This document shows positions 3,536-43,326 of a stretch of DNA of 64,000 bases, piece after piece; the stretch's first letter is position 1; each line of letters starts with the position of its first letter. The stretch is taken from assembly GCA_017447265.1 (NCBI GenBank), contig JAFSOA010000007.1:90095-154094 (forward strand). Reading direction: 5' to 3'. The notes beneath the pieces are model-generated. The model did not search any database. It worked only from the letters and a program-made list of their open reading frames with translations, and was not told the origin of the DNA. Origin of the DNA: Bacteroidales bacterium (GTDB lineage: Bacteria > Bacteroidota > Bacteroidia > Bacteroidales > UBA932). The position numbers were made by a program, and so were the translations under genes.

Positions 3536-3610
3536 ACTTCGCTGAGCTCTGGTTTCCGTCTCGCTCCCGAAAAAAGGTCGCTTCATCGGAAACCACCCGC
3601 TCAGCTACGC
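3536..3610 (+). repeat. Covarying hairpin repeat, copy A (rhaT-rhaD gap)
   Basis: Stem arms GGTTTCCG (3551-3558) and CGGAAACC (3587-3594) are perfectly complementary around a loop with TCTCGCTCCC, an A-run and GGTCGCTTC. An outer arm CGCTGAGC pairs with GCTCAGCT. It fills most of the gap between two cotranscribed genes, beginning about 19 bases after the rhaT stop in mRNA direction. The same architecture with different but still paired stems is seen at 35434, 41097, 43243 and inside rhaB at 6196. Confidence 0.85.
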
Positions 3611-3628
3611 CCTTACATCATTATTCTC

Positions 3629-4636
3629 CTATATCAACTGAGGCAGGAATGTACTGAAGATTAGGACGGCAAGGCCGATGAGCAAGACGATGACCGTCTT
3701 GCGGTCGGCGCCTTTCCATTCTTTCAGGATGATGCCCCATACATTGCTGAAGGTCACGTTCAGGGCCATCAGAATGCACCAGCTGAAGGTGATCAGGGTC
3801 GGGTAGTCGCGGAGGAAGCCTTTGCCGAGGCTCAAGCCGAAGAACTGGCTGTACCAGAGCAGGCCGGCCAGGGCGCAGAACAGCAGGTTATGGCGCCAGA
3901 GCGCTTTCTGCTTGTAGTCGCCCCAGGTCTTGTTCTTGCTGTTCTGGTAGAAGCAATATACAGCGTTGGTCAGGAAGCCACCGAAGGTCACCAGCAGGGT
4001 GGCAGGGAGGCTCTTGAAGATGTCGGGCGTCTGCTCCCAGGTCAGCGGTTCTCCGAAGCTGAGGCCAATGTTGAAGCAAGCGCTCATAAAGCCGGCCAGC
4101 AGCGCCACGGCGATGCCTTTGCCGAAATTGAAGTCCTTGACAGCTTTCTTCCGCTCTTCTTCGGGAAGGGCGGCGGCCTTCATCGCGCCGGCCACGCCGA
4201 TGATGGCGATGCCGATCAGGGTAACCACCACCCCAATGATGACCGAGGATGTCAGGTCGTGGGCATGGCCCGTGAAGACGGGGCCTAGGATGGCGCCGAG
4301 GGCGGAACAGGTGCCGAGGGCGATGCTCTGGCCCAAAGCGACGCCCAAGTAGCGCATGCTCAGGCCGAAGGTCAGGCCGCCGACGCCCCAGAGCATGCCG
4401 AAGAGGATGGTCAGGAGGCTGGCTTTCGGGTTGGAAGCGAAAAGGGCAAAGAGGCTTTCACCGCTCGGCACGGCGAGCAACGCGCCCAGCAGCGGGAAAA
4501 GCAGCCAGGCGAAAACGCCCTGGACGATCCAGTAGCTTTCCCAGCTCCAGGCCTTGATCTTGTTGATCGGCACGTAGCTGCTGCTCTGGCAGAACGCCCC
4601 GATGGCGATGATGACAAGTCCAATGATCAGGTTCAT
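3629..4636 (-). CDS. rhaT: L-rhamnose-proton symporter
   Basis: 335 residues with about ten hydrophobic helices and no soluble domain, of the RhaT family in the drug/metabolite transporter superfamily. The N-terminal helix (IIGLVIIAIGAFCQSSSYVP) and the KAWSWESYW segment are typical of RhaT. It imports L-rhamnose with protons across the inner membrane. The start ATG overlaps the rhaA stop by four bases (ATGA), so the two are probably translationally coupled. It lies between rhaA and rhaD, which fixes the substrate as rhamnose with good confidence. Confidence 0.95.
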   Translation of the reverse strand: MNLIIGLVIIAIGAFCQSSSYVPINKIKAWSWESYWIVQGVFAWLLFPLLGALLAVPSGESLFALFASNPKASLLTILFGMLWGVGGLTFGLSMRYLGVALGQSIALGTCSALGAILGPVFTGHAHDLTSSVIIGVVVTLIGIAIIGVAGAMKAAALPEEERKKAVKDFNFGKGIAVALLAGFMSACFNIGLSFGEPLTWEQTPDIFKSLPATLLVTFGGFLTNAVYCFYQNSKNKTWGDYKQKALWRHNLLFCALAGLLWYSQFFGLSLGKGFLRDYPTLITFSWCILMALNVTFSNVWGIILKEWKGADRKTVIVLLIGLAVLIFSTFLPQLI

Positions 4637-5883
4637 CTCTTAGACGTAATTTCTCTTTCGTATTTCTCGATTTCCGGGATGAAGGCTTCGCCGACAGGGA
4701 CGTTGTTCTTGTAGTTGAAGTAGTCGAAGACGGCGCCGAAAGGCAGGGTCTTGGCTTCTTCGAGGAGGGCGAGGCGCTGGAAGCCCCGGCCGGCGTCTTC
4801 GTATTCGCGGAGCTTGGCCAGCGGTTCCAGCAAGGCGCTCAACAGGCACTTCTGCGTAGCGCGGGTGCCGATCACATAGGCGCCGATGCGGTTGATGGCG
4901 GCATCGAAATAGTCGAGGCCGATGTGGCTGCGGCTCAGGGCGTCGGCCCGCACGATCTCCTTGAAGAGGTCGAGCGTCTGGTCGTTCATGATGGTCACAT
5001 GGTCGGAGTCCCAGCGGATGGGGCGGCTCACGTGGAGCATCAGTTCCGGCACGAAAAGCAGCAGCGAGGCTACCATGTCGGCCACGTTCTCCGTCATTTC
5101 ATAGTGCCCCGTATCGAGCGTGTATATCAGCTTGCGCGTGGCGCAGTAGCCGGCCACGAAATCGTGCGAACCCACGGTGTAGCTTTCCAGACCGATGCCG
5201 AAGAGCTTGGCCTCCAGGCAAGTCTTCATGCCGGGAAGCTTTTCCATAAGGATCTCGTCGAGGCTCTCGGCGAAGATCTCGCGGTAGCGCTTACGCTCTA
5301 CGGTCTGGTCTTTCGATCCGTCGTGCACCCAGATGTTCATGATGCAGGGGTCGCCCTGCGCGCGTCCCATCGCATCGGCGATGCGTCTGCAGCGCTTGGT
5401 ATGCTCGATCCAGAAGTCCCGGATTCCCTTGTCGGGATTGGCCAGCGAAAGGTCGCCGCTCTTGGCGTGGCCGAAGGAGGTGGAGTTGAAGTCGAGTTTC
5501 AGGCCGTTCTCCTTTGCCCACTGGATCCAGCTTTCGAAATAGCGCACGTCCACCTGGTCGCGGTCCACGAACTTGCCGCCGAAGTCGCCGTAGATTTCAT
5601 GGAGGTTCAAACGGTGGTTGCCGGCGATCAGGCTTTTGGCGAAGAGCACGTCGGCGCGCACTTCGTCGATGTTGCGAGCGCGGCCCGGATAGTTGCCAGT
5701 GGTCTGGATGCCGCCCGACAGGCCGGCTGCGCTCTCGAAGCCGATGACGTCGTCGGTCTGCCAGCAATGCAGCGAGATGGGGGTCTTTTCGAGGGTTTCA
5801 ACCGCCTTGTCGGTGTCTACGCCGAGGGCGGCGTAGCGTTCGCGGGCGTACGCGTAGGATTGGAGGATATCTTTTTCTTTCAT
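4633..5883 (-). CDS. rhaA: L-rhamnose isomerase
   Basis: 416 residues from the ATG at 5883; a longer reading frame reaches back into rhaB and is rejected. The enzyme converts L-rhamnose to L-rhamnulose. The N-terminal SLHCWQTDDVIGFE segment, the GGIQTTGNYPG motif and the metal-site region NLHEIYGDFGG are characteristic of the RhaA TIM barrel. The start overlaps the rhaB stop by ATGA and the stop overlaps the rhaT start in the same way, so rhaB, rhaA and rhaT form a tightly coupled series. Length is normal for the family. Confidence 0.96.
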   Translation of the reverse strand: MKEKDILQSYAYARERYAALGVDTDKAVETLEKTPISLHCWQTDDVIGFESAAGLSGGIQTTGNYPGRARNIDEVRADVLFAKSLIAGNHRLNLHEIYGDFGGKFVDRDQVDVRYFESWIQWAKENGLKLDFNSTSFGHAKSGDLSLANPDKGIRDFWIEHTKRCRRIADAMGRAQGDPCIMNIWVHDGSKDQTVERKRYREIFAESLDEILMEKLPGMKTCLEAKLFGIGLESYTVGSHDFVAGYCATRKLIYTLDTGHYEMTENVADMVASLLLFVPELMLHVSRPIRWDSDHVTIMNDQTLDLFKEIVRADALSRSHIGLDYFDAAINRIGAYVIGTRATQKCLLSALLEPLAKLREYEDAGRGFQRLALLEEAKTLPFGAVFDYFNYKNNVPVGEAFIPEIEKYEREITSKR

Positions 5884-7316
5884 TGGGGAAGATAGGTTTT
5901 GACTTGGAAGGTATCGGCGATGAGGCGGCGCATCTGCCAACGGTCGGTCACCAGGCCGGCCGTCCGGGCCTGGAGCATGAGGTTGCCGATGGCGGTGGCT
6001 TCGGTCGGACCGGTCACCACCGGCATGCCGAGTGCGTCGGCGGTCCACTGGTTCAGTAGTTCATTGGCGCTGCCGCCGCCGATGATATGCAGTTTTTCGA
6101 TCTTGAAAGGTGCAAAGTCTTGCAGCATATCCAGCACTTCTTTGTATCGATCGGCCAGGCTGTGATAAATACAACTGACGATTTGCGCATCGCGGTATAG
6201 CCACGGGCGGTTTTCGGATCGCGAGCATTTTTTCGCGAGCGGGACGGAAACCGGAGCGGCTGAAAGCGATGCGCTGATTTCCGCCACCATATCTTTCGGA
6301 TTCGCGAAACGCGGGTCGTCGGGATTGATGCGGCCAGGGAAGGCTTCTTCGGCGCGCGCCATCTCCACGAGCTGCGCATAACCATAGTCGCGCCCCTCGG
6401 CCTTCCAGCGCTGTCGACACTGCTCCAGCAGCCACATGCCCGTAATGTTCTTCAGGAAACGCGTCGTGCCGTCGATGCCGCCCTCGTTGGTAAAATTGGC
6501 CTTGGCCGAGGCCTCGTCGATGATCGGCGCCGGCACTTCGATGCCTATCAGGCTCCAGGTGCCGCTGCTCAGGTAGGCGAAACGCTCGTCGGCAGCCGGC
6601 ACGGCGGCGATGGCCGACGCGGTGTCGTGCCCCGCCACGGAAATGACCGGAATCCCTTGGTATTCCCCCACCTTCGTACCCGGCTGCACGATGGGCAGCA
6701 GCATGTCGGTGCGGATGCCCAGCTTCTCCAGCAGCGCGGTATTGAACTGGCGGCTGTTCTGGTCCATCATGCCCGAAGTGGAGGCGATGGTGTACTCGCA
6801 TACCTTCTTGCCTGTCAGCAGGTAGGCCAGCAGGTCGGGTACAAAAAGCAGGCTCTGCGCATCGCGCAGCGGCGCAAAGCCTTCCTGCGTCTGCGCATAG
6901 AGCTGGAAGATGGAGTTGAAGTTCATGACCTGGATGCCGGTGGCGGCATACAGCTCTTCGCGCGGCACAGTCTGGAACACCTTTTCCGGAATGCCCTCCG
7001 TATACGGGTCGCGGTAGGCCCGCGGCAGGCCCAGCAGCGTGCCGTCTGCGGCTACGAAGCCAAAATCCACGCCCCATGTGTCGATGCCGATAGAGTCGGG
7101 CCGCACGCCCCGGCCGGCCAGTTCCGCCAGGCATTTCTTGAAGTGCTCGCCAATGGCGACGATGTCCCAATAGTACTTGCCTTCCCGCTCGACAAGGGCG
7201 TTCGGGAAGCGGTACACCTCTTCCATGGAGAAGCGGCCCTCCGCAAACGTACCCAGCAGGGCCCGCCCGGAGGTCGCACCGCAGTCAAAAGCCAGAAAAG
7301 TATGCTTCTCTTTCAT
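5880..7316 (-). CDS. rhaB: Rhamnulokinase with an in-frame palindromic insertion
   Basis: 478 residues, FGGY-family sugar kinase that phosphorylates L-rhamnulose at O-1. The ATP-binding start FDCGATSGRALLG (about residues 8-20), the substrate segment IDTWGVDFG and the second phosphate motif SVAGHDTASAIAAVP are all present. The start is set at MKEKHTF, two bases after the GH3 stop; longer frames overlap GH3. Oddity: residues about 351-373 (around VPLAKKCSRSENRPWLYR) have the composition of an insertion and are encoded by a copy of the dispersed hairpin repeat (6196-6265). The insert lies between the conserved NPKDM and CIYHSLADRY parts, a surface region in FGGY kinases, so the enzyme is probably still active. 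Confidence 0.95.
   Translation of the reverse strand: MKEKHTFLAFDCGATSGRALLGTFAEGRFSMEEVYRFPNALVEREGKYYWDIVAIGEHFKKCLAELAGRGVRPDSIGIDTWGVDFGFVAADGTLLGLPRAYRDPYTEGIPEKVFQTVPREELYAATGIQVMNFNSIFQLYAQTQEGFAPLRDAQSLLFVPDLLAYLLTGKKVCEYTIASTSGMMDQNSRQFNTALLEKLGIRTDMLLPIVQPGTKVGEYQGIPVISVAGHDTASAIAAVPAADERFAYLSSGTWSLIGIEVPAPIIDEASAKANFTNEGGIDGTTRFLKNITGMWLLEQCRQRWKAEGRDYGYAQLVEMARAEEAFPGRINPDDPRFANPKDMVAEISASLSAAPVSVPLAKKCSRSENRPWLYRDAQIVSCIYHSLADRYKEVLDMLQDFAPFKIEKLHIIGGGSANELLNQWTADALGMPVVTGPTEATAIGNLMLQARTAGLVTDRWQMRRLIADTFQVKTYLPQ
6196..6265 (-). repeat. Covarying hairpin repeat, copy E, inside rhaB
   Basis: Plus-strand arms CGGTTTTCG (6208-6216) and CGGAAACCG (6245-6253) pair with a single G-T wobble, around a loop whose inner arms CGCGA and TCGCG also pair. 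The loop type matches copy D at 41097 rather than copies A, B and C. It keeps the rhaB frame open. Unlike the intergenic copies, it lies in the opposite orientation relative to transcription. Confidence 0.8.
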
Positions 7317-7317
7317 A

Positions 7318-9423
7318 TCAGTACGAATAGGCGACCCGCTGCAGGGCCTTGTCGGCCGAACTGCCGCCGACCAGCAACTCCCACGCACCCTTCACGGGCA
7401 CCATGTCACCGGCTTCGGGCGACCAGCCCAGGAAGGTTTCCGCCGTCAGCGGGAAGGAAACCGTGACGGTCGCACCCGCCGGGATATGGACCCGCCGGAA
7501 GCCGCGCAGGCTCTTCAGCGGCCCTTCCGCATCGGCGGGCTGCCGCACATACAACTGCACCACCTCATCGGCGTCGCAGGCACCGTCGTTCGTTACGGGA
7601 ACTTCCAGCACGCTTCCGTTCACGCGGGGAGCACCATAGGCAAAGTGCGTATAGCTCAAGCCGTAGCCGAAGGGGAAGAGCGCTTCGCCCTTGAAATAGC
7701 GGTAGGTACGGCCTTGCATGTCGTAATTCTCATAGTCCGGCACCTGCTCGATCGAGCGGTAGAAAGTGACAGGCAGTTTGCCGGAAGGGACCACGTCTCC
7801 GAAGAGAAGTTCCGCCAGCGCCGTGCCTCCTTCCTCGCCCGGATACCAGGCCTGAACAATGGCGTCGCAGTGCTGCGTTTCGGGCACCAGGCCCATGGCG
7901 GAACCGGAGAAATTGACCAGGACCACCCGCTTGCCGGCCTGGTGCAGGGCGGCCAGCAGCTGCCGCTGCACGGCGGGCAATTCGATGTCGGTGCGGTCGC
8001 CGCCCCGGAAGCCGGGCAGGTCGACAGGCATCTCTTCGCCCTCCACCTTCGGCGAGATGCCGCCGGCGAAGACCACGATGTCGATGTCTTTCAGTTGCTT
8101 GAGCACACCGGCTATCTCTTGGGCCGACAGCGGCTCCCTGCGCACTAGCTCGCAACCCTGGAAGCTTACCAGGCCGGGGATACGCTCGCGCATGGCTTCT
8201 GCCAGCGTCACAGTCTGTTCCGGAATCGGATTGTAGTTGCCCCAGAGCATTTCCTTGTCGTCGGCATTGGGGCCGATCACCGCGATGCGGGCGCCCGGCA
8301 CAAGGGGCAGGATCCCGTCCTTGTTCTGAAGCAGGACCATCGATTCCTGCGCCATCTGGCGGGCCAGGGCGCGGTGAGCAGGGCCTTCCACGATGTCGTC
8401 CGACAAGTCTGCCCATGCGGCATCATTGTCGTCCAGTTCGCCCAGGCGGATACGGGCGGCCAGGATACGGGTCAGCGCAGGTTCAAGCTCGGCTTCATCA
8501 AGCAGGCCGGCGGCGACGGTCTCGGGAATATGGCGGTACGATTCGCCGCAGTTGAAGTCGGTGCCGGCACGGACCGCTTCCGACACGGCCTGTGTCACAT
8601 CTTCACAGTAGCCGTGGCGTCCTTCCATGAAGAAGTCATGGATGGCCCAGCAGTCGGAAACCACCAGTCCCCGGAATTTCCACTCGCCCCGGAGCACCGT
8701 GTCGATGAGGAAGCGGTTGGCGCCGCAAGGCACGCCGCGGAAGCGGTTGTAGGCAATCATCACTTCCTGCACCCCGGCCTTGGTCACCAGGTCCTTGAAG
8801 GCGGGGAGGTAGGTTTCGCGCAGGTCGCGGTCGCTCACTTCGGCATCGAAACTATGGCGGTTCCATTCCGGTCCGGAATGGACGGCGAAATGCTTGGCGC
8901 AGGCATGCGTCTTCAGGACAGGCGCATCCAGCGGACCCTGCAGGCCCCGCACCACGGCCATGCCGAGCTGGCCGGTCAGGTAAGGATCTTCGCCATAGGT
9001 TTCCATGCCGCGGCCCCAGCGCGGGTCACGGAAGATATTGATGTTGGGCGTCCAGAAGGTGATGCCTTCGTACCAGTCGGAGACACCGTCGGCCATGCCC
9101 TGGCGGTGTTTGACCCGTCCTTCGTCGCTCACGGCCGTAAAGACCTGCTCAACCAGCGGCTCGTCGAACGAAGCCGCCATGCCGATGGGCTGCGGGAAAG
9201 TGGTCGCCTTGCCGTTGCGCGCCACACCGTGCAGTGCTTCGTTCCACCAGTTGTAGGGACGGATGCCGAGGCGTTCCACCCCGCCGTCGTCGTGCCGCAT
9301 CAGGGAGGCTTTTTCCTCGAGCGTCAATTGGGAAATCAGGCTTTGCGCCCGCTCTTCGGGCGTCGGATTGTGGGTGCATGCCGCCACGACAATGGCCAGC
9401 AGCAGGAGTTTCAGCTGTTTCAT
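7318..9423 (-). CDS. GH3 glycosidase lipoprotein (xylosidase/glucosidase-like)
   Basis: 701 residues. A lipoprotein signal with lipobox VVAAC places Cys16 at the lipidation site, so the enzyme is exported and membrane-anchored. The catalytic barrel runs from about 30 to 330 with the nucleophile Asp in GLVVSDCWAIHDFF, and with TFWTPNINIFRDPRWGRG and ETYGEDP, which are typical of the beta-xylosidase/arabinosidase branch of GH3. The second alpha/beta sandwich (KDGILPL, GPNADD) and a C-terminal fibronectin-like domain follow. It is the first gene of the rhamnose operon, one base before rhaB, so it may release a sugar from a rhamnose-bearing glycan; the actual substrate is not readable from the sequence. 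Confidence 0.9.
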   Translation of the reverse strand: MKQLKLLLLAIVVAACTHNPTPEERAQSLISQLTLEEKASLMRHDDGGVERLGIRPYNWWNEALHGVARNGKATTFPQPIGMAASFDEPLVEQVFTAVSDEGRVKHRQGMADGVSDWYEGITFWTPNINIFRDPRWGRGMETYGEDPYLTGQLGMAVVRGLQGPLDAPVLKTHACAKHFAVHSGPEWNRHSFDAEVSDRDLRETYLPAFKDLVTKAGVQEVMIAYNRFRGVPCGANRFLIDTVLRGEWKFRGLVVSDCWAIHDFFMEGRHGYCEDVTQAVSEAVRAGTDFNCGESYRHIPETVAAGLLDEAELEPALTRILAARIRLGELDDNDAAWADLSDDIVEGPAHRALARQMAQESMVLLQNKDGILPLVPGARIAVIGPNADDKEMLWGNYNPIPEQTVTLAEAMRERIPGLVSFQGCELVRREPLSAQEIAGVLKQLKDIDIVVFAGGISPKVEGEEMPVDLPGFRGGDRTDIELPAVQRQLLAALHQAGKRVVLVNFSGSAMGLVPETQHCDAIVQAWYPGEEGGTALAELLFGDVVPSGKLPVTFYRSIEQVPDYENYDMQGRTYRYFKGEALFPFGYGLSYTHFAYGAPRVNGSVLEVPVTNDGACDADEVVQLYVRQPADAEGPLKSLRGFRRVHIPAGATVTVSFPLTAETFLGWSPEAGDMVPVKGAWELLVGGSSADKALQRVAYSY

Positions 9424-9488
9424 ATCTCGGATTCGCTAGTCGGATTCACGAAGATACGAAAAATCCCGATTTTTATCTAAATTTGCAT
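9424..9488. promoter_or_regulatory. Divergent promoter and candidate operator of the rhamnose locus
   Basis: Only 65 bases separate the GH3 start (minus) from the right-hand regulator start (plus). A plus-strand -7 element TAAATTTG lies at 9478-9485, so close to the ATG that the transcript would be nearly leaderless. A minus-strand element TATCTTCG (9456-9449) is one base off TATCTTTG. Between them is an inverted repeat with perfect arms, AAAAATC-cc-GATTTTT (9459-9474), well placed to be a shared operator. The operator role is an inference. Confidence 0.5.
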
Positions 9489-10577
9489 ATGCCCTTTACG
9501 CCCATCTATCTGTACGGTCTGGCAGCGGCGGTCTATGTCACCACCTGCCTGATGGCGGCTGCGGTGCGCTGGTTCCACATGTGCAAGCCGTACAACCACA
9601 ACCCGGAATACTACTATCCGAGCCGGCCCTATGTCGTGGCAGCGTGGATCAGTTCTCTGTTTCTGCTGCCCTATGTGCTGAACCCGGCCAGTGCGGATGC
9701 ATGGTTCGTAGCGCGGCTCTATTTCCTGCCCGTGACAATCTATCACTTCTCGCTGCTGATCTTCTCGTTTTTCGGCAACGTGATGCAGTGGAAAAAATGG
9801 CAATGGCCTACCATCCTTTCAGGCGTGCCGGTGGTGGTGGCGCTGCTGGCCGCCGAGGTGGTCGCCATCCTGCCGGGCGACCAGCTGGGCGGAACCACCC
9901 TTTCGAATTATATCGTATATATCCTGGGCCTGCTCATCACGGGCGTGTGCTTCGCTTCCCTCGCCATGGTGCGGATAGGGGCCGGACGCTACGACAACGA
10001 CGAGTTCTCCAACCCCACCGATTTTCCTGTGACACAGGCACGGCGCTGGATCTCCATCATCCTGTTCAACACGGCGCTCTGTTGGGTGGGCGCACTCTTC
10101 GACAGTCCGGCGGTACTGGCGGTCATCCAGCTGCTGATCGCCGTCTCGTGCGTGGTCTTTGTGATCTCGGTGCTGCACCCCAACCGCAACCGTCCCGTGG
10201 AGGAAGCCAAGGAGGACGCAGCCGACCAGGAAGAAGAGCCCCGGACGCAGGGTTACCTGCGGTCCTTGTCGAAGCAGCGGCAGGCGGAAATCCTTGCCGC
10301 CGTGATCACGGTGGTGGAAGAGCAGGAGGCCTATCTCGATCCGCATCTTACCCTGCAGGACGTCGCGGACCGCTGCGGCTACAACCGCACCTATATTTCC
10401 GGCCTGGTGAAAAGTGAACTGGGCGGCTTCTTCGCCTATGTGAACCGCCTCCGCATGACGCATGCCGAACGGCTCCTGGCGGAGAACCCGGGCATGCCGG
10501 TCAGGGAAGCGATCGACGCCTCCGGCTTCGGCTCCTCCACCTCCTATTATAAAATCAAGCACCAGCTGGGAAGCTAG
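9489..10577 (+). CDS. Membrane-embedded AraC-type transcriptional regulator (right paralogue)
   Basis: 362 residues from ATG 9489; the frame extends upstream but that part lacks sense and would cross the divergent promoter. About six or seven membrane helices occupy the first 225 residues (opening MPFTPIYLYGLAAAVYVTTC), followed by an acidic linker and an AraC-type domain with LTLQDVADRCGYNRTYISGL and a second helix pair near EAIDASGFGSSTSYYK. It is the same length and layout as the regulator at 1614-2702. It is divergent from the GH3-rha operon and is the better candidate for its direct regulator. It converges on lolD with 26 bases between the stops. Confidence 0.82.
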   Translation: MPFTPIYLYGLAAAVYVTTCLMAAAVRWFHMCKPYNHNPEYYYPSRPYVVAAWISSLFLLPYVLNPASADAWFVARLYFLPVTIYHFSLLIFSFFGNVMQWKKWQWPTILSGVPVVVALLAAEVVAILPGDQLGGTTLSNYIVYILGLLITGVCFASLAMVRIGAGRYDNDEFSNPTDFPVTQARRWISIILFNTALCWVGALFDSPAVLAVIQLLIAVSCVVFVISVLHPNRNRPVEEAKEDAADQEEEPRTQGYLRSLSKQRQAEILAAVITVVEEQEAYLDPHLTLQDVADRCGYNRTYISGLVKSELGGFFAYVNRLRMTHAERLLAENPGMPVREAIDASGFGSSTSYYKIKHQLGS

Positions 10578-10603
10578 CGCTTGTTCTGCCGGGCCCGGGG
10601 ACC

Positions 10604-11254: not shown

Positions 11255-11262
11255 CAGGAAGA

Positions 11263-35396: not shown

Positions 35397-35416
35397 AATA
35401 TAAACGATTGATTCTA

Positions 35417-35424: not shown

Positions 35425-35433
35425 ATAAAAAAC

Positions 35434-35552
35434 TGCTCCGCTTCGCTATGGCATTTGTCTCGCTCCCAAAAAAAGGTCGTTTCGCCTCGCTCTGGTATTT
35501 GTCTCGCTCCCAAAAAAAGGTCGCTTCGCCAAATACCACCCGCTCGGCTACG
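35434..35552 (+). repeat. Covarying hairpin repeat, copy B, with a partial 5' duplication
   Basis: Arms GGTATTTG (35494-35501) and CAAATACC (35530-35537) pair perfectly. The loop TCTCGCTCCC, A-run, GGTCGCTTC is the same as in copies A and C. A 44-base segment holding the 5' arm and loop is duplicated in front (the first TTTGTCTCGC at 35454, the second at 35498), but that extra copy has no partner arm. Confidence 0.85.
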
Positions 35553-35560
35553 CTTTACAC

Positions 35561-35641: not shown

Positions 35642-35649
35642 TAGACACA

Positions 35650-35665
35650 TGTTCCACGTGGAACA
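35650..35665. promoter_or_regulatory. parS-type centromere site 1
   Basis: TGTTCCACGTGGAACA, a perfect 16-base palindrome that equals the Pseudomonas-type parS sequence and is close to the general parS consensus (TGTTtCACGTGaAACA). It lies nine bases beyond the mnmG stop. ParB binding is inferred from sequence only. Confidence 0.8.
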
Positions 35666-35673
35666 TTCAGTAC

Positions 35674-37542
35674 TTAGCGGCCGAAGTAGACGAGGAGGAC
35701 GGATATGTCGGCGGGGGAAACGCCGGAGATGCGGGAGGCCTGGGCGATGGTGCGGGGACGGTAGCGGTCGAGCTTGATACGGCACTCCATTGAGAGGGCT
35801 GTGATTTTGAAGAAATCAAAGTCGGCGGGAATCTCCAGGTCTTCGAGACGGAGTATCTTTTCCGCGAGCCGCCTTTCCCGGTCGATATAGCCGGCATACT
35901 TGATACGGATCTCGGCCGTATCGCGCACTTCTTCGTAAGTTTCGGGAATTGTTCCACGTGGAACATTTTCCAGCAAACCAGACAAGGTAACATCCGGACG
36001 AACCAGCAGATCGGCAGCCCGACGGGAATTTTTGAGAGGAGTAGAACCCACGGACGTCAAATAGGGATTGACGGTCTCGGGTTTGAGAGAAAGCTCCTGC
36101 AGGGTATCGACCAGCGTATTTACACGGCTATACTTATTTATAAATGTTTCCCACCGCTGATCTGAGACAAGGCCGAGATCACGGCCAAGGGGCGTCAGGC
36201 GCTCGTCGGCGTTATCCTGACGCAAAAGAATACGGTACTCGGCACGAGAGGTAAACATACGATAAGGCTCATCGACACCTTTCGTCACCAGATCGTCGAT
36301 CAGGACTCCGATATAGGCCTGGTCGCGCTTCAGGATGAAAGGTTCTTTGCCCGCCAGACGCAGATGGGCGTTGATGCCGGCCATCAAACCTTGGGCGGCC
36401 GCTTCCTCGTACCCGGTCGTGCCATTGACCTGGCCGGCCAGGAACAGGCCGTCAATTACTTTGGACTCGAGGGAGGGCTTGAGCTGAGTAGGATCGAAAT
36501 AATCATATTCCACGGCATACGCCGGTCGGAAAATCTTGGCATGTTCAAGACCTTTGATGGCCCTCAAGGCAGCCAGCTGGGTTTCCAACGGCAACGACGA
36601 AGAGAAGCCCTGCAGATAGTATTCATAGGTATCCCAGCCCTCAGGCTCCAGAAAGAGCTGGTGGGAATCCTTACCGGCAAAAGTGCGCAACTTGTCTTCG
36701 ATGGACGGGCAATAACGCGGGCCTATGCCCTGAATCCGGCCTGTAAAGAGCGGCGAGCGGTCAAAGCCTGTACGCAGAATTTCGTGTACCTCGGGATTGG
36801 TATGCACGAGGTAGCAGCACTTCTGCGGGCGGCCCTGCTGGATTTGCGTCGGTTGCGCAAGAAAAGAGAAACGGGCCGGACGCTCATCGCCATCCTGTCG
36901 CTCGAGTTTCGTCAAGTCGAGTGATCGCGCGTCGATGCGGGGCGGCGTGCCGGTCTTCATCCGGCCGACGGTCAGGCCGGCCGCCGCCAGGCGACCCGAC
37001 AGACCCTTAGCCGGAAGCTCTCCGATGCGGCCGCCTTCCGAAGTCTCGGTCCCGACGAAAAGTCGTCCTTCGAGGAAAGTGCCGGCCGTTAAAACCACAC
37101 TTTTGGCCGAAAATTCTGCGCCCATCGATACACGCACACCTGAAATATTCGATTCTCGGAGCGTTATATCGACGACCGTATCTTGCCAAATATCTAAGCC
37201 ACAGGTATTTTCAAGCACCGAACGCCAGTTCGTCGAAAAGAGGCGTTTATCACACTGGGCGCGGGGACTCCACATGGCGGGTCCTTTCGACCGGTTCAGC
37301 ATGCGGAACTGGAGCGTCGAGGCGTCGGTCACAAGGCCCGAAAATCCCCCCAACGCATCTATCTCTCTGACCAACTGACCTTTAGCAATGCCGCCCATCG
37401 CCGGATTACACGACATCTGGGCGATTTTGTTCATGTCTTGCGTCACCAGCAGCACGCGCGAACCCAGCCGCGCTGCCGCCACCGCCGCTTCACAGCCGGC
37501 ATGGCCGGCCCCGATTACGATAATGTCATAGTCAGCAACCAT
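35674..37542 (-). CDS. mnmG: tRNA uridine-5-carboxymethylaminomethyl modification enzyme, FAD subunit
   Basis: 622 residues. FAD site [17 protein letters not shown] at the N-terminus, the family motif [31 protein letters not shown], and the C-terminal helical domain that meets MnmE. With MnmE it modifies the wobble uridine of several tRNAs. The start overlaps the ybeY stop by 11 bases. A second parS palindrome is inside the gene and is read as NVPRGT. mnmG (gidA) is close to the replication origin in many bacteria. Confidence 0.97.
35950..35965. promoter_or_regulatory. parS-type centromere site 2, inside mnmG
   Basis: The same 16-base palindrome as at 35650, exactly 300 bases away, within the coding sequence of mnmG where it encodes part of ENVPRGT. 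Confidence 0.8.
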
Positions 37543-37996
37543 GCTGCTTCGCGGCTCGCATCTGCTCGAACAGCAGCAAGGCCCGGTTCTCGGCCGTGCG
37601 CATCCGCTGCTGTTTCCTGGGCGTCGTGTCGTCGTAGCCGATCAGGTGCAGCAAGCCGTGCACGATCACCCGGTGCAACTCACGCTCGAACCCTTCGCAA
37701 TAGGCCTTGCCATTGATCCGCACCGTGTCGATGCTGATATAGATGTCAGCGCTCACGCCCCGGCGTCCGGTCTCTAGATAGTAGTCGTCTGAGTTGTCGA
37801 ACGTGATGATGTCCGTCTCGTAGTCATGGCCCAGGAATTGCTGGTTGATGGCTTTCAGATACGGGTCGGAACAAAAGATGTAGTTGAGTTCGCCAATTTC
37901 GTAGCCACGTGCGGCGGCAACTTCCTGTAACCAGCTACTTATCAGACGTTTCCCCTTCGGCGAGAAAGACGTGTCTTCCTTGAAATAACGTATCAT
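37532..37996 (-). CDS. ybeY: Endoribonuclease YbeY (rRNA maturation)
   Basis: 154 residues, UPF0054 family. The metal site [11 protein letters not shown] (about 114-124) shows the spaced His pair; the usual third His is replaced by Asp, as often in this phylum. It takes part in 16S rRNA 3' processing and ribosome quality control. Its stop overlaps the mnmG start, so the two form an operon. A -7 element TATTTTTG (38043-38036) lies upstream on the minus strand. Confidence 0.93.
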
Positions 37997-38005
37997 AAAA
38001 TTTTA

Positions 38006-38043
38006 TACCTTTGCGTGATGCTACTGAAAGCACGACAAAAATA
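38006..38043. promoter_or_regulatory. Divergent promoters of mdh and ybeY-mnmG
   Basis: Plus-strand TACCTTTG (38006-38013) before mdh and minus-strand TATTTTTG (38043-38036) before ybeY. This is where the main gene direction of the window switches. Confidence 0.55.
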
Positions 38044-38069
38044 CAAAAAACTACGTAAACCATAACATT

Positions 38070-39017
38070 ATGTCTAAAGTTACAGTCATCGGCGCCGGCA
38101 ACGTGGGCGCTACCTGTGCAAACGCCATTGCACACATGAAAATTTGCTCGGAACTCGTTCTTCTCGACATCAAGGAAGGTCTTTCCGAGGGTAAGGCTAT
38201 CGATATGATGCAGACCGCGAAGATGTACGGCTTCGACACCCGGATCAAGGGCGTGACCAGCGACTATGCCGCCACCCGCAACTCCGACGTGATCGTCGTC
38301 ACCTCCGGTATTCCCCGCAAGCCGGGCATGACCCGCGAGGAGCTCATCGGCGTCAACGCCGGCATCGTCAACGGCGTGGTCAGCAATGCGCTGAGATACT
38401 CCCCGAAAGCCATCTTCATCATCATCTCCAACCCGATGGATACGATGACCTACCTGACTCTCAAGGCTACTGGCCTGCCGAAGAACCGTGTGGTCGGCAT
38501 GGGCGGACAGCTCGACAGCAACCGCTTCTGCTACTACCTGAGCCAGGCCCTCAAGGCCGCTCCGAGCGACGTGGAAGGCATCGTGATCGGCGGTCATGGC
38601 GACACGACGATGATTCCGCTCATCAGCAAGGCTACCTACAAGAGCCAGCCTGTCACCAAGAAACTCAGCAAGGCTGTGGCCAGCAAGGTGGTCGCTGACA
38701 CGATGGTCGGCGGCGCTACCCTGACCAAGCTCCTCGGCACCTCCGCCTGGTACGCTCCGGGCGCTTCCTGCGCTGCCATGGTGAAGTCCATCCTCCTCGA
38801 CGAGAAGAAGGTATTCCCTTGCTGCTGTTACCTGGAAGGCGAGTACGGCCACGAAGACCTCTGCATCGGCGTCCCCGCCGTCATCGGCAAACGCGGTGTC
38901 GAAAAGGTGGTCAAATACGACCTGACCCAAGAAGAGAAGGCTGCGTTCGACAAGAGTGCCGCCGCTGTGAAGAATGTTAATAACGTGCTGTACGAGAGCA
39001 AGATTTTATCTCGCTAA
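38070..39017 (+). CDS. mdh: Malate dehydrogenase
   Basis: 315 residues of the LDH-like malate dehydrogenase group. NAD site VIGAGNVGATCANAIAHM at the start, active loop GIPRKPGMTREEL with the malate-specific Arg pair, and catalytic His in GGHGDTTMIP. It interconverts malate and oxaloacetate and fits with the fumarate reductase genes at 46 kb as part of the reductive, succinate-forming branch. Codon use is biased (many GCT, AAG, CTC), as expected for an abundant enzyme. Confidence 0.97.
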   Translation: MSKVTVIGAGNVGATCANAIAHMKICSELVLLDIKEGLSEGKAIDMMQTAKMYGFDTRIKGVTSDYAATRNSDVIVVTSGIPRKPGMTREELIGVNAGIVNGVVSNALRYSPKAIFIIISNPMDTMTYLTLKATGLPKNRVVGMGGQLDSNRFCYYLSQALKAAPSDVEGIVIGGHGDTTMIPLISKATYKSQPVTKKLSKAVASKVVADTMVGGATLTKLLGTSAWYAPGASCAAMVKSILLDEKKVFPCCCYLEGEYGHEDLCIGVPAVIGKRGVEKVVKYDLTQEEKAAFDKSAAAVKNVNNVLYESKILSR

Positions 39018-39099
39018 CTATCAGTAAGTTATAAAAAATCCTTCAAAAGTTTTGAACAATTTTCTGCAAGAAAAATTGGATTAATTGATTTTTTCTTCT

Positions 39100-39107
39100 T
39101 AATTTTG
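39100..39107 (+). promoter_or_regulatory. tonB promoter -7 element
   Basis: TAATTTTG at 39100-39107 with a TTGG at 39076 about 21 bases upstream. The leader to ATG 39168 is about 55 bases and A-rich. Confidence 0.5.
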
Positions 39108-39167
39108 GGTATTGTACTATTGTATACGGCGCAATAATTGATAAGCAATAACAAAAAACGTAACGAT

Positions 39168-39860
39168 ATGGAAAGCAAAATTTCTCCCAAAGCTGACCTT
39201 ACGAAGAAGAACGCACTGTTCCTCGAGATTGGTCTGATTGTCGCTCTCGGCATCTGCCTGCTCGCGTTCGAATGGTCTTCTTCCGACAAGGTTGAAACGA
39301 TGGACCTTACGGCCCAGACCGTGGCTATCGAAGAAGAAGAGATCATCAACACCCAGGAGCAGCAGGAAATTCCCCCGGAAGTTCCCAAGATCCCGGTTCT
39401 TTCCGACATCATCGACATTGTGGACGATGACATCCAGGTAAATGACGACCTTTTCATCGACATGGAGGACAATGCAAACCTCGGTGTGGAAATCATGGAC
39501 TACCACGCTGCTGTCGAGGAAGAAGTGGTCGAAGAGGAAGCCATCCCGTTCGCGCTCGTCGAGGAGAAACCGAAATTCCAGGGCGGTGACGCCAACACGT
39601 TCTCCGCTTGGGTGAACAAGAACCTCCAGTATCCGGAGATCGCCAAGGAGAATGGCATCCAGGGTCGTGTGACGCTGCAGTTTACGGTCAACACCGACGG
39701 CTCCGTCAGCGACGTGAAGGTGCTCCGCGGCGTGGACTCCTCGCTCGACAAAGAGGCTGTCCGTATCGTCTCGATGTCTCCGAAGTGGACGCCGGGCAAA
39801 CAGAGAGAGCGTCCGGTGAAGGTGGTTTACAACTTCCCGGTCGTATTCCAGCTCCGCTAA
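39168..39860 (+). CDS. TonB-type energy transducer
   Basis: 230 residues from ATG 39168 (an ATG ten codons upstream gives a weaker start). One transmembrane helix (about 17-34, LEIGLIVALGICLLAFEW), then a long acidic, Val/Glu/Ile-rich spacer rather than the usual Pro-rich one, and a TonB C-terminal domain (about 145-230) with KNLQYPEIAKENGIQGRVTL and DKEAVRIVSMSPKWTPGKQ. It passes proton-motive energy to outer-membrane receptors. No exbB or exbD adjoins. Flanked by its own promoter and a strong terminator. Confidence 0.92.
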   Translation: MESKISPKADLTKKNALFLEIGLIVALGICLLAFEWSSSDKVETMDLTAQTVAIEEEEIINTQEQQEIPPEVPKIPVLSDIIDIVDDDIQVNDDLFIDMEDNANLGVEIMDYHAAVEEEVVEEEAIPFALVEEKPKFQGGDANTFSAWVNKNLQYPEIAKENGIQGRVTLQFTVNTDGSVSDVKVLRGVDSSLDKEAVRIVSMSPKWTPGKQRERPVKVVYNFPVVFQLR

Positions 39861-39882
39861 GCGGAAGGGTTTTTACAACACG

Positions 39883-39912
39883 AATGGCCGCCTTTTCGGG
39901 CGGCCATTTTTC
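39883..39912 (+). terminator. Terminator of tonB
   Basis: Stem ATGGCCGCC / GGCGGCCAT with a short TTTTC-containing loop, followed by TTTTTCG. Strong intrinsic terminator. Confidence 0.9.
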
Positions 39913-39929
39913 GTTTCCTAAAATAAGAC

Positions 39930-39937
39930 TATCTTTG
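39930..39937 (+). promoter_or_regulatory. -7 element of the S58 peptidase promoter
   Basis: TATCTTTG, 10 bases before ATG 39948, so the mRNA leader would be only a few bases long. Confidence 0.55.
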
Positions 39938-39947
39938 TAGAAAATCT

Positions 39948-41090
39948 ATGTCCATGAAAAGGCTTCTCGTCTCCATATGCCTGCTGGCGCTGTGTGTCGG
40001 CGTCGTTGCGCAGGAAAACGGCCGCGGCCGGATCCGTGATTTCGGCATTGAGCCGGGCATATTCAAGCCGGGCGAATACAACGCCATTACCGATGTACCG
40101 GGCGTGAAAGTGGGTCAGGTGACCCTCATCGAAGGGGAGGACGTGCGCACCGGCGTGACGGCGATCGTCCCGCACGAGGGCAACGTGTTCCGCAAGAAAT
40201 GCCCCGCCGCCGTGTACGTGGGCAACGGCTTCGGCAAACTGGCAGGCGTGACGCAGATCCGCGAGCTGGGCAACATCGAGACGCCCATCGTTCTCACCAA
40301 CACACTTTCCGTGGCTCAAGGCATCGAGGGTGTACTGAACTACTCCCTCAACGTAAAAGGCAATGAAAACGTGCGCAGCGTCAACGCCGTGGTGGGCGAG
40401 ACCAACGACGGACAGCTCAACGACATCCGCGGACGGCACGTCACCGCGGACCACGTGGTCAAGGCCATCCTGAGCGCGAAATCGGGCCCTGTGGAAGAGG
40501 GCTGCGTGGGCGCTGGCACCGGCACCGTCTGCTTCGGCTGGAAAGGCGGCATCGGCACCTCCTCACGCGTGCTGCCGAAAGACCTGGGCGGCTATACGGT
40601 CGGGGTCCTCGTCCAGACGAACTACGGCGGCATCCTGGAAATCGACGGTGCGCCAGTCGGCCGGCGCCTGGGCCAATACAGCTTCAAGAAGAGCGTTGAA
40701 AATCCTGACTACCAGCTCAATCCGGATGGATCGTGCATGATGGTCGTCTTCACGGACGCGCCCCTTGACGCCCGCAACCTCGAACGCATGGCCAAGCGCG
40801 CCATGCTGGGTCTGGCCAAAACCGGCGGCATCGCCTCGAACGGCAGCGGCGACTATGTGATTGCCGTGAGCGTAGCGCCTGAAAACCTGATCGATGAAAG
40901 CACCGACAAATACTACCCGACGCTCCTGCACAACGACGCCATGAGCCCGCTCTTCGAAGCCACGATCGAAGCCTGCGCCGAAGCCCTTTGGAATTCTCTC
41001 TTCATGGCTACCGACATGACCGGCCGCGGCGGCCTCACAGTCGAAGCCCTGCCGATCCCGTCGGTGCTGGAAGTGTTGAACAAAAAATAA
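39948..41090 (+). CDS. Secreted S58 (DmpA/P1) family aminopeptidase
   Basis: 380 residues (a second ATG two codons in is equally possible). A signal peptide with CLLALCVGVVA is followed by RIRDFGIEPGIFKPGEYNAITDVPGVKVGQ, typical of DmpA-type peptidases (quoted in part: ITDVPGVKVGQVT). The self-cleavage site and nucleophile Ser is in GGIGTSSRVL (about 205), and the C-terminal NGSGDYVIAVS and Thr/Gly-rich end are usual. Relatives release N-terminal amino acids, including D-residues. Likely periplasmic. A hairpin repeat follows directly, then hflX. Confidence 0.9.
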   Translation: MSMKRLLVSICLLALCVGVVAQENGRGRIRDFGIEPGIFKPGEYNAITDVPGVKVGQVTLIEGEDVRTGVTAIVPHEGNVFRKKCPAAVYVGNGFGKLAGVTQIRELGNIETPIVLTNTLSVAQGIEGVLNYSLNVKGNENVRSVNAVVGETNDGQLNDIRGRHVTADHVVKAILSAKSGPVEEGCVGAGTGTVCFGWKGGIGTSSRVLPKDLGGYTVGVLVQTNYGGILEIDGAPVGRRLGQYSFKKSVENPDYQLNPDGSCMMVVFTDAPLDARNLERMAKRAMLGLAKTGGIASNGSGDYVIAVSVAPENLIDESTDKYYPTLLHNDAMSPLFEATIEACAEALWNSLFMATDMTGRGGLTVEALPIPSVLEVLNKK

Positions 41091-41096
41091 CGATAA

Positions 41097-41174
41097 GCGT
41101 AGCTGAGCGGGTGGTTTTTGGAGCCGCGAGCATTTTTCGCGAGCGGGACAAAAACCAGAGCGCAGCGAAGCGAC
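41097..41174 (-). repeat. Covarying hairpin repeat, copy D
   Basis: Arms GGTTTTTG (41113-41120) and CAAAAACC (41149-41156) pair perfectly. The loop has its own inner pair (CGCGA / TCGCG), as in copy E. It begins six bases after the peptidase stop and ends 18 bases before hflX, in the same orientation relative to transcription as copies A, B and C. Confidence 0.85.
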
Positions 41175-41192
41175 AATCGATGACGACAGACA

Positions 41193-42410
41193 ATGTACGA
41201 AACCGTAGATAACAGAATACCCCAGGCAGCCTTCGTCGCCCTGATCACCCGGCAACAAGACGAAGACCAGGTCAAAGAATACCTCGATGAACTCCAGTTC
41301 CTCGCCACGACCGCCGGCGTCGAAGGCACGAAACGCTTTACCCAGCGCCTCGACCATCCCGACTCCCGCACCTACATCGGTTCAGGTAAACTCCAGGAAA
41401 TCAAGCAGTACGTCCGCGAAAACGAACTCGACTACGTCATCTTCGACGACGAACTCTCCCCCTCACAGATGCGCAACGTCGAGCGCGAAATCAACGACCA
41501 CTGGCCCGACCACCACTGCGTCGTCGTCGACCGCACCGGCCTCATCCTCGACATCTTCGCTGAACGCGCCCAAACCGCCTACGCCAAGACCCAGGTCGAG
41601 CTCGCCCAGTACCAGTACCTCTATCCGCGCCTGACCGGCATGTGGACGCACCTCGAACGCCAGCGCGGCGGCAAAGGCGGCCTCAACATGCGCGGCCCGG
41701 GTGAGAGCCAGCTGGAAACCGACCGCCGCATCGTGCTCGACAAGATCACCCGCCTCAAGGAGCAGCTGCGCAAAATCGACCGGCAGATGGCCTCCCAGCG
41801 CTCGAACCGCGGACAGATGGTCCGCATCTCGCTTGTGGGCTATACCAACGTCGGCAAGAGCACCCTCATGAACCTGCTGGCCAAGAGCGAGGTGTTCGCC
41901 GAAAACAAACTGTTCGCGACACTCGACACCACCGTTCGCAAGGTCGTCATCGAAAACGTCCCCTTCCTGCTGAGCGACACTGTGGGATTCATCCGCAAAC
42001 TGCCCACCCAGCTCGTGGAATCGTTCAAAAGCACGCTCGACGAGGTACGCGAAGCCGACATCCTGATGCATGTGGTCGACATCTCGCACCCCAACTTCGA
42101 AGACCAGATCCGCGTCGTGAGCCAGACCCTCAAGGAGATCGGCGCCCAGGACAAACCGGTCTACATGGTGTTCAACAAGATCGATGCGTACCGCTACGAG
42201 CCCTACGACGAGTTTTCGCTGCAGGAAAAAACAGAGAAGAACTTCACGCTGGAAGAGCTGAAGAACAGCTGGATCTCACGGGAACACACGCCGTGCATCT
42301 TCCTGTCGGCACGTGAGAAAATCGGTGTCGACAAGCTCCGCAACGACCTCTACAAGATGGTCGCGGAGATCCATGCCGGGCGCTATCCGTTCGACAACTT
42401 TTTGTGGTAG
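41193..42410 (+). CDS. hflX: Ribosome-associated GTPase HflX
   Basis: 405 residues. N-terminal HflX domain with FDDELSPSQMRNVE and the glycine-rich GGKGGLNMRGPGESQLETDRR-type signature (in part GPGESQLETD), then a G domain: GYTNVGKSTLMN, DTVGFIRKLP and NKID. HflX splits stalled or hibernating ribosomes under stress. Length is normal. It ends exactly where the convergent hydrolase gene ends, with no gap between the stops. Confidence 0.96.
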   Translation: MYETVDNRIPQAAFVALITRQQDEDQVKEYLDELQFLATTAGVEGTKRFTQRLDHPDSRTYIGSGKLQEIKQYVRENELDYVIFDDELSPSQMRNVEREINDHWPDHHCVVVDRTGLILDIFAERAQTAYAKTQVELAQYQYLYPRLTGMWTHLERQRGGKGGLNMRGPGESQLETDRRIVLDKITRLKEQLRKIDRQMASQRSNRGQMVRISLVGYTNVGKSTLMNLLAKSEVFAENKLFATLDTTVRKVVIENVPFLLSDTVGFIRKLPTQLVESFKSTLDEVREADILMHVVDISHPNFEDQIRVVSQTLKEIGAQDKPVYMVFNKIDAYRYEPYDEFSLQEKTEKNFTLEELKNSWISREHTPCIFLSAREKIGVDKLRNDLYKMVAEIHAGRYPFDNFLW

Positions 42411-43232
42411 CTACGCGAAGCGCAAAATGGCATCGATGCACGCCGCCGGCTGCTCGATGAACGAATTGTGCCCCGCGTTCGGAATCAGCGCATACTGCAC
42501 CGCCGGGAAGAGTTTCTTCATCTCCCCGACCCGCTCCAGCGGCAGGAAGGCGTCGTGATCGCCATGGATGAGCAGCACCGGCACCGGCGGCTGTTTCAGT
42601 ACGTCCGACAGGTCGTCGCGGCGGCGCAGGCCTTCGATCGAAGCGATAATGCCTTCGGGGTCGTGCGTCTCGCAAAGCTCCACCGTCTCGCGGATTTTTT
42701 CGTCACACGCGCGCAGGTTTTCCGCATAATACATGTTCGGGATCGAGAGGTCGGCTACGGTGAACAGCTTGCCCTGGGCCACGAATTGTTTTTCACGGCC
42801 GCGGTCCTCGATTTTCTGGGGAGAATCAGGATAGGGATGCGAGTGCAGCAGGATGGCTTTTTCCATGCGCCCGGGGTACTCGCGCAGGGCCTGGAGCGTA
42901 ACGTAGCCGCCCATGGAATGTCCGGCCAGGATGGCTTTGTCGACGCCGCACTTGTCAAGCACGCCCATGACGACGGCGGCGTCGAAAGAAAGGGTATTGA
43001 CGCGTTCGCCGTCGGGTCCTGCGGGGGCGTAGTCGGTGAGGCCGTGGCCCGGCAGGTCCAAGGTAATCAGCCGGAAATGTGGTTTCAACACCTCGATGAG
43101 CTCGTTGAAGATATACATGGTCTCGAGATAGCCATGCAACAAAACGAGGGTCTTCGCTCCGGCGGGCGATTTTTCGTCTTTCGTATCCCAAACGTGAACG
43201 GTTATTCCGTTCGCAGTCGTGAAAAATTCCAT
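42411..43232 (-). CDS. Alpha/beta hydrolase
   Basis: 273 residues, single alpha/beta-hydrolase domain without a signal peptide. Oxyanion region LLHGYLETMYIF (about 31-42), nucleophile elbow AGHSMGGYV (Ser near 107), Asp in HGDHDAFLP and His in PNAGHNSF complete the triad. The cap region is Tyr-rich (PNMYYAENL). The substrate is not evident; relatives include esterases and small C-C hydrolases. It follows the GH20 gene on the same strand with hairpin repeat C between them. Confidence 0.88.
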   Translation of the reverse strand: MEFFTTANGITVHVWDTKDEKSPAGAKTLVLLHGYLETMYIFNELIEVLKPHFRLITLDLPGHGLTDYAPAGPDGERVNTLSFDAAVVMGVLDKCGVDKAILAGHSMGGYVTLQALREYPGRMEKAILLHSHPYPDSPQKIEDRGREKQFVAQGKLFTVADLSIPNMYYAENLRACDEKIRETVELCETHDPEGIIASIEGLRRRDDLSDVLKQPPVPVLLIHGDHDAFLPLERVGEMKKLFPAVQYALIPNAGHNSFIEQPAACIDAILRFA

Positions 43233-43242
43233 GTCATTTATC

Positions 43243-43326
43243 TATTTGCTCCGCCGAACTCTGGTGTTCGTCTTGCTTCCAAAAAAGGTCGCTTCACCGA
43301 ACACCACCCGCTCGGCTACGCAAATA
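43243..43326 (+). repeat. Covarying hairpin repeat, copy C
   Basis: Inner arms GGTGTTCG (43263-43270) and CGAACACC (43298-43305) and outer arms TATTTGC (43243-43249) and GCAAATA (43320-43326) are both perfect. The loop is the A/B type. It lies in the 105-base gap between GH20 and the hydrolase. Confidence 0.87.

What the first reader, a model, noticed from the sequence alone, without database searches (positions are those of the whole stretch)
3536..43326. Dispersed hairpin repeat whose stems covary between copies
Five copies: A 3536, E 6196 (in rhaB), B 35434, D 41097, C 43243. The 8-base stem arms are GGTTTCCG/CGGAAACC, GGTATTTG/CAAATACC, GGTGTTCG/CGAACACC, GGTTTTTG/CAAAAACC, and in E GGTTTTCG/CGGAAACC with one wobble. 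The sequence changes but pairing is kept, while the loop (TCTCGCTCCC, A-run, GGTCGCTTC, or its variant with an inner CGCGA/TCGCG pair) is conserved in two subtypes. Compensatory change in both arms is the classical sign that the folded form is selected, either as RNA or as a DNA hairpin read by a nuclease or transposase. I do not know a described family with this layout.
Basis: seen in the sequence. Interest (0 to 1): 0.82.

Follow-up and report, generated by a model that had tools for sequence, protein, structure and literature searches.

The report
Shape-conserved hairpin repeat of Bacteroidales
An uncultured Bacteroidales bacterium and some of its close relatives carry dozens of copies of a short DNA hairpin whose stem letters differ from copy to copy yet nearly always still pair, and the hairpin sits at the ends of genes and even, without breaking them, inside housekeeping genes.

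Summary
The five copies are real, and a covariance model finds 49 places in the 2.13 Mb genome (47 after removing an assembly duplication; five in the window). In 42 of them 17 of 20 stem pairs change on both sides and 93% of cells pair. What stays constant is unpaired: the internal loops, purine-rich on one strand. So the family is defined by a fold. It was found in one genus only (18 of 61 genomes; 0 of 392 others of the order, with a stricter search). Copies hug stop codons, favour convergent gene pairs, lie mostly in one orientation between co-directional genes, and twelve read in frame through open reading frames, among them rhaB, dnaX, hydF and cbiD. At orthologous sites copies can be inverted or overwritten by other variants, still paired. 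I read it as a non-autonomous palindromic element, working like REP, RPE or ERIC elements, whose shape is what is recognised. The mobilising enzyme is not identified: Y1 transposase genes co-occur with it but are, with one exception, not next to it. A regulatory mRNA role remains the main rival.

The parts
3536..3613 (+). copy A: subtype I, arms GGTTTCCG/CGGAAACC, outer stem GCTGAGC/GCTCAGC; between two genes on the - strand (named by eye: rhaT-like and a class II aldolase)
6190..6267 (-). copy E: subtype II, in frame inside rhaB (27 residues); the same loop holds the element in G034, G026 and G023, and inverted in G001
5880..7388 (-). rhaB (L-rhamnulokinase) that hosts copy E; the FGGY_C domain match spans the insert
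35434..35478 (+). truncated nested unit before copy B (GGCATTTG arm, subtype I loop, no 3' arm of its own)
35479..35556 (+). copy B: subtype I, arms GGTATTTG/CAAATACC; between two genes on the - strand
41094..41171 (-). copy D: subtype II, arms GGTTTTTG/CAAAAACC; 3 nt after a stop codon, 21 nt before the next gene (both on +)
43248..43324 (+). copy C: subtype I, arms GGTGTTCG/CGAACACC; between two genes on the - strand; in L141 and L144 the matching genes abut or overlap at this place with no element

Best explanation
The repeats are copies of one non-autonomous palindromic element of about 75-80 bp (rarer form about 137 bp) that has spread in one genus of Bacteroidales. Its identity is a shape. 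Read on the GCGNAGC...GCGGGTGG...CCAGAGC...GCGNAGC strand, it is a long hairpin of Watson-Crick helices whose letters vary, separated by conserved purine-rich internal loops (GNA/GNA, GGG/GA, GA/GA) and capped by a T-run. Shown here: the fold, the covariation, the constancy of the loops, the genus restriction within what was searched, the placement at gene 3' ends and in frame in proteins, and reversal or replacement at orthologous sites. Inferred: a hairpin-reading enzyme acting in trans (a Y1/HUH single-strand transposase is the best guess) copies or moves it as folded DNA. Only copies that keep the loops spread, stems stay paired because the folded form is the substrate, and recombination between copies or between the two arms then flips and overwrites resident copies. 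Placement reflects where such an insert is tolerated.
For: Constant loop columns against variable stems (T13 40/41, C14 41/41, C73 42/42, C74 40/42, C75 42/42; stem columns up to 1.9 bits). Covariation. About 47 copies in this genome and patchy occurrence, 18 of 61 genomes, as expected of a spreading repeat. The same rhaB loop holds the element, the inverted element, other palindromes, or a plain loop in different species. Of 25 orthologous filled site groups five show a clearly reversed copy, and rhaB in G001 adds a sixth site. Variants swap at 94.6% and 96.8% flank identity: L012/L055, L020/L160. Y1 transposase genes in 17 of 18 carriers against 9 of 19 non-carriers (p=0.003), while RVT_1 (6/18 vs 4/19) and DDE_Tnp_1 (6/18 vs 10/19) show no such link.
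Against: No mobilising gene is shown. In 34 Y1 loci the nearest model hits are about 1.8 kb from the Y1 gene, and RAYT genes have other hairpins; only one Y1-like gene was found in 130 element loci (L167). One carrier, G017, has no Y1 hit. The Y1 link is not corrected for phylogeny, and in a tree of 31 Y1 proteins from the first genomes searched no clade covers all their carriers. No target duplication was seen at the one empty site that I read (C). The orientation bias between genes (28:9 sites) is not predicted by a purely DNA-level element.
Confidence: 0.55

Rival explanations
1. A cis-acting mRNA element: the transcribed GCGNAGC-strand hairpin stabilises, processes or insulates mRNA at gene ends and is kept there by selection.
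For: Between co-directional genes the GCGNAGC strand is the mRNA strand at 28 sites against 9, with 3 ties (p=0.0026; raw 47:13 copies; own genome alone 13:5). Convergent sites 19, divergent 5. 25 site groups stay filled in two or more species. Loops conserved as in structured RNAs. The GCGNAGC strand folds more stably (-34.5 against -28.4 and -35.7 against -30.5 kcal/mol, copies D and A).
Against: No bias inside genes (8:7 sites, 1 tie). Wobble pairs nearly absent in the inner stem (14 of 1,141 cells) and without consistent strand preference (inner 3 GT/11 AC, outer 20/8). 19 of 36 genus relatives have no hit at this threshold, among them G003, 98% complete. Copies sit in frame in unrelated proteins in both orientations. 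No Rfam family at gathering score.
Confidence: 0.22
2. Neutral palindrome with arm-to-arm correction: template switching rewrites one arm from the other, so covariation arises by mutation without selection.
For: Near-perfect inner-stem pairing with few intermediates. In some loci the flanks beyond the element also pair and differ between orthologues (L067/L178, L025/L153). In-place reversals.
Against: It would erase mismatches, yet mismatched internal loops are among the most constant columns. Pairing beyond the ends is not general (own genome, 41 copies: mean 4.39 against 4.26 for mispaired flanks, p=0.26; though over all 126 copies p=0.0135). It does not explain about 47 dispersed copies.
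Confidence: 0.12
3. A true REP/REPIN of a resident RAYT, mobilised by that enzyme.
For: Y1 genes track carriers. RAYTs of this genus are flanked by hairpins with a similar plan as judged by eye, a variable outer stem, a recurring motif and a variable inner stem. In L167 a Y1-like gene lies about 230 nt from a copy. [quoted passage not shown]
Against: No model hit within about 1.8 kb in 34 Y1 loci. In a scan for the two short end motifs in 400-nt flanks of 20 RAYT genes, one (L118, of a non-carrier, no model hit) had both in one flank. No fixed GTAG foot: N in GCGNAGC is free. Y1 genes occur in 9 of 19 non-carriers.
Confidence: 0.08

Closest known systems
REP/BIME/REPIN elements with RAYT (TnpAREP) transposases
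   Same: dispersed palindromes near gene 3' ends, many copies per genome; Y1 genes present in 17 of 18 carriers
   Different: 75-80 bp instead of 20-40 (PMC3733652, abstract as listed); no fixed GTAG or CGTC tag; not found next to RAYT genes except one Y1-like gene in L167; stems variable around conserved internal loops
Rickettsia palindromic elements (RPE); also the 107-bp Correia element and ERIC
   Same: palindromic repeat found between genes and fused in frame inside conserved protein genes (PMC2229807, passages)
   Different: other phylum; RPE 105-146 bp; no sequence relation was tested; the loop and stem pattern here is its own
MITEs in general
   Same: short, non-autonomous, palindromic
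   Different: no parent transposon and no target duplication found; the end motif GCTNCGC reads in the same direction at both ends

Membership tests
REP/REPtron (RAYT-associated) | element flanks a RAYT gene | tested here: not met
   34 Y1 loci searched with the model: 4 hits, 2 at E<0.001, all about 1.8 kb or more from the Y1 gene; short end motifs together in one 400-nt flank in 1 of 20 RAYTs, a non-carrier. Against this: one Y1-like gene about 230 nt from a copy, L167
REP/REPtron (RAYT-associated) | GTAG (or CGTC) terminal tag | tested here: not met
   end motif GCTNCGC (model strand) has N free: 5' T36 C28 A7 of 71, 3' A31 T20 C14 G8 of 73; only N=A gives GTAG on the other strand
REP/REPtron (RAYT-associated) | Y1/HUH transposase in the genome | tested here: inconclusive
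   17 of 18 carriers, 9 of 19 non-carriers; one carrier without, phylogeny not corrected
Rickettsia palindromic element | in-frame fusion in conserved protein genes | tested here: met
   12 of 12 in-ORF own-genome copies read without stop (the gene caller selects for this); 10 of 10 scanned host proteins hit Pfam; rhaB compared with relatives
Rickettsia palindromic element | sequence relation to an RPE family | not tested
   no RPE sequence was fetched
MITE | target-site duplication and terminal inverted repeats shared with a transposon | tested here: inconclusive
   the one empty site read (C) shows no clean duplication; among own-genome element loci no neighbour family looks like a mobile gene
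known structured RNA | Rfam match at gathering score | tested here: not met
   only two tRNAs in the window; five loci with lax threshold give six matches, each below its gathering score

The most novel reading that the evidence does not exclude
A mobile element that is encoded by shape: an enzyme reads the pattern of sheared G.A internal loops on one folded strand, so stem sequence is free to diversify by whole-arm rewriting, and resident copies keep flipping and being overwritten in place, inside coding genes too.
Probability: 0.2. Interest if true: 0.8.

Novelty: new variant of a known kind. Interest (0 to 1): 0.56.

Why it matters
Short palindromic repeats are usually described by a consensus sequence, and families of this kind could be missed by sequence clustering. 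Here the conserved unit is the set of unpaired loops, while the stems vary and stay paired. The orthologous sites at 95-98% flank identity give a natural time series for asking how palindromes are moved, flipped and rewritten, and the in-frame copies in proteins such as RhaB, DnaX and HydF add a case of protein-coding palindromes in Bacteroidales.

Tried and rejected
Transposon with the hairpins as ends (two copies 1.3 kb apart on C8 and again on C9): rejected, ordinary genes between and an assembly duplication. Insertion into pre-existing hairpin loops as a general rule: rejected, pairing beyond the ends is not general, though L023, L032, L010 and L067/L178 have it. RAYT as flanking partner: not supported (exception L167). 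Reverse transcriptase or DDE transposase as driver: no tracking, and no hit in G000, G001 or G007, which are incomplete MAGs. Known RNA family: none at gathering score. Phage carriage: 0 viral contigs for one exact pattern. Strand inference from wobble pairs: inconclusive. Inversion count: the automatic figure is 7 of 25 site groups. I drop L038/L046 (two neighbouring copies cross-paired) and L024/L145 (L024 has a second, reversed copy next to it that may be the true orthologue), which leaves five; in the L072 group the reversed copy is also of another subtype and may be a replacement.
Full report
What is there. I call 'model' strand the one reading TCTCGCTCCC or TCCCGCTCGC. Copies A, B and C have it on +, D and E on -. 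B has a truncated unit in front. A covariance model from nine copies (A1) gives 49 places at E<=0.1 in the own genome, a MAG of 2.13 Mb and 78.7% completeness (150 of 432 candidates scored). Two, on C9, repeat two on C8 inside 2,851 identical bases, which leaves 47. No sixth copy is in the window.

Fold and covariation. For 42 own-genome copies (E<=1e-8 in that search; the weakest, the long-form copies and the C9 duplicates left out) 93.3% of 818 cells pair, 17 of 20 pairs have double changes, and there are 134 double-change cells against 41.0 shuffled; no shuffle of 500 reaches any of the five measures. With partners slid by 1-3 columns pairing falls to 30-42%. That alignment is fitted to the structure. 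The first alignment was not, and gives 88.3% against 78.6% shuffled, though its number of further pair types equals the shuffles. A structure-blind alignment with corrected mutual information puts 5 of 11 predicted pairs in the top 25 of 2,628 ranked column pairs, 0.1 expected, the best being a stem pair; many other top pairs reflect subtype linkage. With two added end pairs the figures are 90.7% paired, the end pairs themselves only 65.5%.

What is constant. Unpaired columns are among the least variable: T13 40/41, C14 41/41 opposite C73 42/42, C74 40/42, C75 42/42; T35 38/42 and C36 39/42 opposite T51 41/42 and C52 40/42. A few stem columns are as constant (C12, G16, T18). On the other strand the loops are GGG/GA and GA/GA. 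The ends read GCTNCGC on the model strand, GCGNAGC on the other: 71 of 129 at the 5' end, 73 at the 3' end, 62 at both, with N free; six control motifs reach at most 20. From memory, GCGNAGC in DNA is an unusually stable mini-hairpin and tandem G.A pairs are stable in DNA and RNA; I tested neither. The two loop subtypes differ at a covarying pair, GC 28 against CG 14, so they are one hairpin. A rarer apex is a long G-rich form (L025, L098, L065, L153, L176).

Wobble. In 127 unique copies the inner stem has 1,115 Watson-Crick cells of 1,141, with 3 G-T, 11 A-C and 12 other; the outer stem has 660 Watson-Crick, 20 G-T, 8 A-C and 140 other. Structured RNAs usually carry more G-U (recalled). The two strands are not told apart by this.

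Range. R1 hits 18 of 61 genomes at E<=0.01: the own, 17 of 36 of the same genus, 0 of 24 of other families of the order. A wider search of 393 genomes of the order at E<=1e-4 finds only the own genome; it scored only 12 candidates per genome, so weak copies would be missed; five of the 393 were listed as other genera of the same family. An exact pattern in the species-genome collection gives 46 stretches in seven assemblies, titled Bacteroidales or Bacteroidia; three titles name rumen or a ruminant, two are RUG genomes (rumen uncultured genomes, recalled), two do not say. Contig lengths tie these to G001, G006, G007, G026, G032 and G033. The source of the window's own genome is not shown. One viral scan gave none.

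Placement. With a home-made gene caller, 121 distinct copies give 60 between co-directional genes, 23 convergent, 11 divergent and 27 in a gene. Grouped into 72 sites, the GCGNAGC strand is the mRNA strand at 28 co-directional sites against 9, with 3 ties (p=0.0026); in-gene sites split 8:7 with 1 tie; convergent sites number 19 and divergent 5, whereas the window's gene pairs have 6 of each. Of the 60 co-directional copies 31 start within 15 nt of the upstream stop codon and 10 end within 15 nt of the next start.

In proteins. All 12 in-ORF own-genome copies (of 47 examined) read through without a stop, a set that the caller selects for. The ten scanned match families of RhaB, DnaX, an HI0933-like flavoprotein, two ABC proteins, an HHH protein, an HU-CCDC81 protein, a cobalamin adenosyltransferase, CbiD and HydF. 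RhaB is the best case: of 40 genus genomes 26 have a hit, some only to distant kinases; I compared 23 loci and could read the loop in 21. The element is in G000, G034, G026 and (decayed) G023, and inverted in G001; palindromes that look to me like REPs occupy the loop in G014, G028 and G022, and plain short loops are seen in others such as G003 and G027. G001's rhaB match also holds one TGA outside the printed loop, so that gene may be broken or misassembled. Against the solved kinase 4c23 the insert falls where the solved chain has 12- and 2-residue gaps.

Turnover. 62 orthologous pairs of filled sites with both flanks matched form 25 site groups; 49 pairs have the same orientation and 13 the opposite, in 7 groups. 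I discount two groups: L038/L046, cross-paired neighbours, and L024/L145, where L024 has a second, reversed copy beside the first. Five remain, and rhaB in G001 is a further site. L023 and L166, with flanks 95.7% identical, carry the same subtype and the same T-G mismatch, reversed. L065 and L176 are reversed together with their long neighbour. Subtype swaps occur at L012/L055 (94.6%) and L020/L160 (96.8%; L020 typed I by eye, the script left it open). Stems differ but pair: L135 GGTATGCG/CGCATACC, L008 GGTGTCCG/CGGACACC, L054 ATTGG/CCAAT against L057 TTTCG/CGAAA. Other pairs did not change, for example L025/L154 (identical, 97.8%).

Who moves it. Y1 transposase genes: 17 of 18 carriers, 9 of 19 non-carriers, p=0.003, not corrected for phylogeny. 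RVT_1 6/18 vs 4/19, DDE_Tnp_1 6/18 vs 10/19. In 34 Y1 loci the model gives four hits at E<=1, two below 0.001 (L098, L109), all about 1.8 kb or more from the Y1 gene. I printed the flanks of 20 RAYT-like genes: many show hairpins of their own; the two short end motifs occur together in one flank of one of them, L118 of a non-carrier. Of 130 element loci one, L167, holds a Y1-like gene, about 230 nt from the copy. Of 31 Y1 proteins in a tree one clade of 8 rows holds carriers only, but it does not cover G006 or G010. Among own-genome element loci the only recurrent neighbours are duplicates, overlapping loci and distant relatives such as two ABC proteins.

Literature. Six searches of the held library showed, in their listings, no paper on such an element in Bacteroidales. 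I saw passages of PMC3733652 (GTAG and CGTC repeats), PMC6006769 (Y1 superfamily; subclass 2.6, mostly Bacteroidetes, flanked by atypical structures) and PMC2229807 (RPE and other small mobile sequences, with in-frame fusions). The original RPE paper asked for is not held.

Verdict. A real, apparently undescribed, fold-defined repeat family of a known general kind. Mobility by a hairpin-reading enzyme is inferred; an mRNA role is the main alternative. The corrections made on re-checking (five reversed groups instead of six; the L118 and L167 cases) did not call for a change of odds.

Noticed in passing
L098, L105, L112, L118, L120 (RAYT flanks): RAYT genes of this genus are flanked by their own long hairpins, whose stems also differ between RAYTs while a TGATNATCA-like motif recurs in several (by eye).
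   Followed up: partly
L025 1587-1723, L098 4886-5024, L065, L153, L176: A long (about 137 nt) G-rich apex form with GGGAGGGG-hairpin-GGGAGGGA and a GACGCGAAGCGTC hairpin; its outer arms differ but pair between orthologues, and it is reversed between some of them.
   Followed up: partly
L165 5971-6083 and L151 about 4700-4810: A similar short insert (about 36 nt) interrupts the 3' arm of copies at two different loci in two genomes: a nested repeat.
   Followed up: no
rhaB loop in L186 (G014), L191 (G028), L194 (G022): Other palindromes resembling REPs (CGTCATGCCCGG...) sit in the same rhaB loop in other species, so this loop tolerates repeated insertions.
   Followed up: partly
G000 contigs C8 and C9 (L083, L084): 2,851 identical bases on two contigs, probably an assembly duplication.
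   Followed up: yes
L167 5997-7142: The only copy in the 130 element loci with a Y1-like gene, about 230 nt away (RUG12415).
   Followed up: no
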